Shown piece after piece: positions 15,907 to 15,991 of a stretch of 46,612 nt of DNA. A model generated the notes under the pieces. That model did no database searches and was not told the origin of the DNA. It saw only the letters and a program-made list of their open reading frames with translations. Every line of letters begins with the position of its first letter. The stretch's first letter is position 1. Origin of the DNA: Sphaerisporangium sp. (lineage in GTDB: Bacteria; Actinomycetota; Actinomycetes; Streptosporangiales; Streptosporangiaceae); the NCBI GenBank assembly GCA_025964675.1, contig JAOPYI010000292.1, forward strand, positions 1 to 46,612, given 5' to 3'. The position numbers and the translations under genes are program-made.

Positions 15907-15979
15907 TGCCCCCGGTGGGACTCGAACCCACACTGGAACCCTTTTAAGGGGTTTGCCTCTGCCATTGGGCTACGGGGGC
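15907..15979 (-). tRNA. tRNA with UAA anticodon on a class I fold (amino acid uncertain)
   Basis: The minus strand folds into a complete 73-nt cloverleaf. The acceptor stem GCCCCCG/CGGGGGC is perfect (7 bp) with discriminator A73. The T arm GUGGG-UUCGAGU-CCCAC is perfect. The anticodon stem AACCC/GGGUU encloses loop CUUAAAA, so with U33 the anticodon is UAA. The variable region is only 5 nt (CCAGU). The D stem has three good pairs (GCC/GGC) plus a C-A mismatch and a normal GG-containing loop. CCA is not encoded (ACCC follows). A UAA anticodon reads UUA leucine codons, but leucine tRNAs in bacteria have a long variable arm, which is absent here. The identity is therefore open. TATGAT 6 nt upstream of the mature 5' end suggests it is transcribed. 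Confidence 0.85.
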
Positions 15980-15985
15980 GCCGTA

Positions 15986-15991
15986 ATCATA
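15986..15991 (-). promoter_or_regulatory. -10 element of the tRNA gene
   Basis: TATGAT (15991 to 15986 on the minus strand) is 6 nt before the mature tRNA 5' end, so transcription would begin at or next to G1. Two copies of CCGTTACG with an 18-nt period lie just upstream. The -35 region is weak. Confidence 0.5.

What the first reader, a model, noticed from the sequence alone, without database searches (positions are those of the whole stretch)
15907..15979. tRNA with a UAA anticodon but no long variable arm
The cloverleaf is complete and has a -10 element (TATGAT) 6 nt upstream. The loop CUUAAAA gives anticodon UAA, which decodes the rare UUA leucine codon. Bacterial leucine tRNAs are class II with a long variable arm; this one has 5 nt. 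If charged with something other than leucine, it would mistranslate UUA. If charged with leucine, it would be an unusual leucine tRNA. UUA is the codon used for developmental control via bldA in streptomycetes.
Basis: partly seen in the sequence, partly recalled or inferred. Interest (0 to 1): 0.78.

Follow-up and report, generated by a model that had tools for sequence, protein, structure and literature searches.

The report
Short-armed leucine tRNA for rare codons
This is a real, conserved leucine tRNA without the long extra arm that bacterial leucine tRNAs are said to have; it does not seem to mistranslate, and actinobacteria and some phages use this short form widely for rare leucine codons.

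Summary
In detail: a complete tRNA at 15907-15979 (-), anticodon UAA, 5-nt variable loop. It is the only UAA tRNA found in this genome. It is one of three class I leucine tRNAs here (UAA, CAA, UAG); only CAG and GAG are class II.

It is very probably charged with leucine. It carries the published E. coli LeuRS identity set (A73, A15-U48, G18G19, A20a) on a leucine-type D-arm; 168 of 173 distinct family members read keep that set. Each of 19 genomes has one LeuRS above the family cut-off. TTG and CTA codons swap with CTG/CTC in orthologues. In a relative of 48% G+C whose UAA tRNA is class I, TTA aligns with Leu as often as CTC or CTT. Own TTA codons are too few to test.

The family is common: 274 of 296 genomes of the class have a strong match (any of the three anticodons), as do other classes of the phylum and phages. 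In 20 genomes typed, UAA is class I in 15 and each anticodon has one class, never both. Three Streptomyces-like genomes have class II UAA (bldA-like). Two papers touch on mycobacterial tRNALeu loop length in passing; a 2023 review excludes short ones outside animal mitochondria. Charging is inferred.

The parts
15907..15979 (-). class I tRNALeu(UAA), 73 nt; CCA not encoded
   Evidence: ARAGORN; Rfam; model R1 95.7 bits against 60.9 for the best non-leucine tRNA of the own loci searched (this gene is in the model's training set)
15944..15946 (-). anticodon UAA (34-36), followed by A37-A38
15932..15936 (-). 5-nt variable loop CCAGU (44-48), U48 partner of A15
15986..15991 (-). -10 promoter-like element TATGAT, 6 nt from G1
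   Evidence: present in 16 of 16 related loci; the generic sigma-70 scan finds no site, so any -35 is weak

Best explanation
The gene encodes a working class I (short variable loop) leucine tRNA that decodes UUA, and probably UUG by wobble. It is one of a family of class I tRNALeu that, in many Actinomycetota, stands in place of class II tRNALeu for one or more of the anticodons UAA, CAA and UAG. Shown by computation: structure, conservation, sole UAA tRNA found, leucine-type D-arm and E. coli-type identity set, one LeuRS, codon meaning of the family's codons. Inferred: the ordinary LeuRS charges it through A73 and D-loop/elbow contacts (A15-U48, G18G19, A20a), which in E. coli work without the long arm; lack of the long arm should keep SerRS off. 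Not known: expression, and whether the short form changes decoding speed, regulation or toxin sensitivity.
For: Three class I and two class II leucine-anticodon tRNAs in the genome. A14, A15, G18G19, A20a, U48 and A73 together in 168 of 173 distinct class I sequences. Among 38 distinct own-genome rows aligned, A14A15+GG+U48+A73 occurs in 8: the five leucine tRNAs, Lys UUU, Gln UUG and an Asn-like copy; only the leucine ones add the extra A22 with 13.22 unpaired. Covariation. In 20 genomes searched with both models (R1 at E 2e-14 or 1e-14, R2 at E 1e-9) all 60 genome-by-anticodon cells for UAA, CAA, UAG hold exactly one class. One LeuRS above the cut-off in 19 of 19 genomes. Own TTG aligns to Leu in 78 of 91 and CTA in 27 of 30 positions, control CTG 1403 of 1603 (G009). 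In G049 TTA aligns to Leu in 101 of 141, CTC 375 of 523, TTT 24 of 239. LeuRS rules from passages of PMC9976931.
Against: No charging or expression data. Own TTA codons are too few: 5 of 6 alignments to Leu forward, but only 2 of 6 in the reverse direction, so UUA meaning rests on G049, another family. Five of 173 class I sequences break the identity set: G15-C48 (L149), A15 with C48 (L151), and a D-loop one base longer in L152, L102 and the own UAG sibling L044. A15, U48 and A73 also occur in other own tRNAs, so only the combination is distinctive.
Confidence: 0.94

Rival explanations
1. A mistranslating tRNA: UAA anticodon on a body charged with another amino acid, giving non-leucine at UUA.
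For: The short variable loop is against the published rule for tRNALeu; dual-identity tRNAPro variants are reported from Streptomyces and Kitasatospora (PMC11415595 passage); own TTA data are thin and 4 of 6 reverse alignments are not Leu.
Against: It is the only UAA tRNA found; leucine identity set and leucine-type D-arm; codons read by the family align with Leu like CTG/CTC, TTA included in G049.
Confidence: 0.03
2. A pseudogene or decaying copy.
For: No transcript data; a generic promoter scan finds nothing.
Against: 99-100% identity in 11 of 11 congeneric genomes, own included, conserved TATGAT, compensatory pairs, no other UAA tRNA found.
Confidence: 0.01
3. A phage- or array-borne accessory tRNA with a special role, for example resisting tRNA-cleaving defences, rather than housekeeping decoding.
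For: Family members sit in phages and tRNA arrays.
Against: Here it is a single gene among housekeeping genes, kept in all 11 congeneric genomes, with no backup UAA tRNA found.
Confidence: 0.02

Closest known systems
Class II bacterial tRNALeu, including Streptomyces bldA
   Same: Leucine anticodons, A73, A15-U48, G18G19, A20a, 3-bp D-stem with a 13.22 mismatch
   Different: 5-nt variable loop instead of a long arm; C13.A22 instead of G13.A22
Animal mitochondrial tRNALeu
   Same: Leucine tRNA without a long variable arm; A73 and A14 (PMC9976931 passages)
   Different: Bacterial gene with a regular cloverleaf and a bacterial-type LeuRS; independent origin is an inference
Short-loop tRNALeu mentioned in mycobacteria (PMC6582537, PMC11541572)
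   Same: PMC6582537 says an array-borne tRNALeu(TAG) has a short variable loop; PMC11541572 says some M. tuberculosis tRNAs, especially Leu-2, 3 and 5, have a long loop, which suggests that the other leucine tRNAs do not
   Different: In the passages read neither generalises it to the phylum or ties it to rare codons
Allo-tRNAs and tRNAProX
   Same: Unusual bacterial tRNAs with unexpected anticodons
   Different: Those have 8/4 or 9/3 acceptor domains, or tRNAPro bodies (passages); this is a 7/5 tRNA with leucine elements

Membership tests
bacterial tRNALeu (identity) | A73, A15-U48, G18G19, A20a | tested here: met
   rule from PMC9976931 passage
bacterial tRNALeu (identity) | charged with leucine by LeuRS | not testable with these tools
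   only indirect: codon meaning, one LeuRS
class II tRNA | long variable loop of 10 or more nt | tested here: not met
   5 nt
class I tRNA | variable loop of 4-5 nt on an ordinary cloverleaf (7-bp acceptor, 5-bp T stem) | tested here: met
bldA | sole UAA tRNA, dispensable for growth, controls development | tested here: inconclusive
   sole UAA tRNA met; the long arm of bldA-like genes is not shared; dispensability and control not tested
allo-tRNA | 8/4 or 9/3 acceptor domain (PMC7609411 passages) | tested here: not met
   7/5

The most novel reading that the evidence does not exclude
Leucine decoding in Actinomycetota is split by tRNA architecture: common CUC/CUG codons use class II tRNALeu, while rare UUA/UUG/CUA codons often use a separate class I lineage, so rare-codon leucine decoding can be tuned apart (modification, toxins, phage supply). 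The class II bldA of Streptomyces would then be a derived or retained exception that made UUA usable as a developmental switch.
Probability: 0.2. Interest if true: 0.75.

Novelty: new variant of a known kind. Interest (0 to 1): 0.52.

Why it matters
A 2023 review states that tRNALeu keeps its long arm everywhere except animal mitochondria; this phylum breaks that rule on a large scale, so LeuRS recognition and the separation from tRNASer need revisiting there. It offers natural class I/class II pairs on the same anticodon to test what the long arm is for. It makes annotation checks based on tRNA class unsafe in actinobacteria and puts bldA in a new comparative frame.

Tried and rejected
Mistranslation and pseudogene readings were considered and set low (see rivals).

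Own-genome TTA codons: 8 in 36,979 codons of 89 chosen ORFs, too few; G049 was used instead. Own TTG/CTA tests do not bear on UUA directly.

Weak model hits were checked and dropped: G363 (69.1 bits) is Lys and G386 (68.1 bits) is Met; the Thermomicrobium plasmid hit is Lys (68.3 bits); the Providencia phage hit is Met. A G140 'CAG class I' call is a class II copy with a broken 5' part (L242) and was left out of the table.

LeuRS: the own enzyme lacks the stretch before the KMSKS loop that chain 1h3n has. By eye, class I tRNAs do not follow LeuRS layout; not tested formally, no link claimed.

No tree of the 73-nt genes was built; the origin (arm loss from class II, or conversion of another tRNA) is open, though the D-arm points to a leucine ancestor.

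Literature: 10 searches. Seen: passages of PMC11415595, PMC9976931, PMC7609411, PMC9437257, PMC5370408, PMC12803027, PMC10272220, PMC4033280, PMC11541572, PMC6582537, PMC6850298; abstract and part of section 3 of PMC4932002. Only led to the two prior mentions. Most subscription papers are not held, so other notices may exist.

Full report
The thing itself. ARAGORN finds one tRNA gene in the window, 15907-15979 on the - strand, with UAA anticodon, 5-nt variable loop, A73 and no encoded CCA. A TATGAT element lies 6 nt upstream; TATGAT with a 6- or 7-nt gap is kept in 16 of 16 related loci, while flanks diverge (mean ungapped identity over 55 genus pairs: tRNA 1.00, 40 bases upstream 0.64, 60 bases downstream 0.42; the 1-nt spacer shift lowers the upstream figure). 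The gene sits between a Bax-inhibitor-like and a pyridine-nucleotide oxidoreductase gene, with enolase nearby.

The genome. G000 (7.77 Mb, 99.5% complete, 313 contigs) has 57 Rfam tRNA matches. ARAGORN on them gives five leucine anticodons: UAA (window), CAA (L048) and UAG (L044) are class I; CAG (L052) and GAG (L053) are class II (locus labels are shifted by one record and were corrected). A class II leucine model (R2) finds no other class II tRNALeu in G000 or in the single-contig congener G009 down to E 1e-9. So no class II tRNALeu(UAA) was found as a backup.

The family. An alignment of 20 class I genes (UAA, CAA, UAG; 7 of the first 27 rows with odd loop lengths were dropped) has 99.0% paired cells and 16 of 20 pairs with double changes. 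Model R1 scores the three own genes 95.7, 87.8 and 82.0 bits, the next own tRNA 60.9 (UAA and CAA are in the training set). Over a wider set of 173 distinct class I sequences aligned to the model, A14, A15, G18G19, A20a, U48 and A73 are all present in 168. The five others: L149 has G15-C48, L151 has A15 with C48, and L152, L102 and the own UAG gene L044 have a D-loop one base longer.

Why leucine. According to passages of the 2023 identity review (PMC9976931), E. coli LeuRS needs A73, A15-U48, G18G19 and A20a, not the anticodon nor the long arm, and tRNALeu variants lacking anticodon arm and long arm are still charged. The window tRNA has all these bases. Among 38 distinct own-genome rows aligned to R1, A14A15+GG+U48+A73 occurs in eight: the five leucine tRNAs, Lys UUU, Gln UUG and an Asn-like copy; only the leucine tRNAs also have the extra A22 with 13.22 unpaired. 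The mismatch is C.A in 20 of 20 class I and G.A in 14 of 14 class II rows of the model alignments. One LeuRS lies above the family cut-off in each of 19 genomes. The own LeuRS (821 aa) has editing and anticodon-binding domains and aligns to the C-terminus of chain 1h3n (T. thermophilus by recall).

Codon meaning. In 89 conserved ORFs of the own genome (window plus 100 kb), TTA, TTG and CTA make up 169 of 3,599 leucine codons (8, 115 and 46). Against G009 (82 genes), TTG aligns to Leu in 78 of 91, CTA 27 of 30, CTG 1403 of 1603, CTC 1109 of 1260; against G022 (41 genes) TTG 41 of 52, CTA 14 of 17, CTG 665 of 804; against G168 (17 genes) TTG 14 of 15, CTA 3 of 4, CTG 237 of 283. When the codon differs, TTG goes to CTG/CTC/CTT in 110 of 136 cases, GTC in 106 of 1,418. 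In the reverse direction TTG is Leu in 145 of 173, CTA 17 of 22. TTA is too rare: 5 of 6 forward, 2 of 6 in reverse. In G049 (48% G+C over the 400 kb fetched; UAA and CAA class I), 55 of 555 ORFs had a reference of at least 40% identity over 80 columns: TTA aligns to Leu in 101 of 141, TTG 143 of 196, CTA 75 of 107, CTG 88 of 127, CTC 375 of 523, CTT 422 of 568, against TTT 24 of 239. So UUA means leucine where the only UAA tRNA found is class I.

Spread. By my count of the printed rows, 274 of 296 genomes of the class have a best R1 match at E 1e-15 or better; the match may be any of the three anticodons, and only part of these sequences was read (28 of the top loci, all UAA or CAA leucine). 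In the phylum sample 39 of 119 pass E 1e-14; two are Lys and Met, leaving 37: 10 of own class, 27 of other classes; 26 of those 27 were read and carry leucine anticodons (ARAGORN called one Phe with the loop shifted by a base). The remaining 80 of 119 have no match at that level. In 20 genomes searched with both models: UAA is class I in 15 and II in 5; CAA class I in 9 and II in 11; UAG class I in 4 and II in 16; CAG class II in 19 of 19 (none found in G049); GAG class II in 20 of 20; no anticodon was found in both classes in one genome. The 20 were picked by me for complete assemblies and variety, not at random. Three genomes of genus g45 (Streptomyces-like by recall of the bldA sequence) have class I CAA but class II UAA. 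G040 and G110 are all class II.

Named records. By title (phylum by recall) 71 are Actinomycetota (Mycobacterium, Nocardia, Gordonia, Corynebacterium, Bifidobacterium, Actinomadura, Streptomyces and others), 8 are not and one is an unnamed bacterium. Seven of the 8 are metagenome bins and may be phage or misbinned contigs; the eighth, Cylindrospermum sp. NIES-4074, has a tRNA array with all five leucine anticodons in short form. In phages, 101 records match the window tRNA at E 0.01; of 13 loci read, 11 hold a class I leucine-anticodon tRNA, from phages of Streptomyces, Gordonia, Mycobacterium, Rhodococcus, Sinorhizobium, Pseudomonas, Acinetobacter, Cronobacter, Erwinia and Prochlorococcus and from a faecal phage. 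The Sinorhizobium one scores only 60.8 bits with R1.

Literature. [quoted passage not shown] Against that, PMC6582537 notes that a cluster thought to be horizontally acquired in mycobacteria carries a tRNALeu(TAG) with a short variable loop (passages), and PMC11541572 says some M. tuberculosis tRNAs, especially Leu-2, 3 and 5, have a long loop (passage). Neither generalises in the passages read. The Streptomyces catalogue PMC4932002 (section 3, part 1 of 2) states one UUA-decoding tRNA gene per genome.

Verdict. The finding is a correct reading of a real feature that departs from the published rule, but it is not an isolated oddity and very probably not a mistranslator: class I tRNALeu is the UUA decoder in 15 of the 20 genomes typed. 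New here are the extent, the mutual exclusion with class II, and the restriction to UAA, CAA and UAG in those 20 genomes.

Noticed in passing
L269 (Streptomyces phage Karimac) 1501-1575: A Streptomyces phage carries a class I tRNALeu(UAA), although the Streptomyces-like genomes typed use a class II bldA-like tRNA for UUA; it could free phage genes from bldA timing (speculation).
   Followed up: partly
L347 2790-3266 (Cylindrospermum sp. NIES-4074): A dense tRNA array has all five leucine anticodons, also GAG and CAG, as short-loop tRNAs.
   Followed up: partly
L493 2001-2028 (Rhodococcus phage REQ2); L495 2001-2033 (Gordonia phage Rabbitrun): 28 and 33 bases matching the 3' part of the window tRNA (96% and 91%) lie 36 and about 215 bases from integrase genes: possible attP sites, so this tRNA gene may be a phage integration site. 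A like match in Gordonia phage Daredevil (L494) has no integrase within 2 kb.
   Followed up: partly
L281 93-177 (Mycobacterium phage MalagasyRose): An annotated tRNA-Pyl(cta) holds 26 bases identical to bases 48-73 of the window tRNA.
   Followed up: no
L406:781-3246 (-): Own LeuRS lacks the stretch before the KMSKS loop (leucine-specific domain by recall); PDB 5ah5 (822 aa) aligns to it in one piece, and LeuRS matches of other Actinomycetes are laid out differently.
   Followed up: partly
L276 145-222 (Erwinia phage Rouille): A class I-like tRNA with an AAG leucine anticodon in a phage (69.8 bits with R1).
   Followed up: no
L054 101-168 (own genome, contig C36): A short Asn-like tRNA gene (48.2 bits in Rfam), perhaps a decayed copy.
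   Followed up: no
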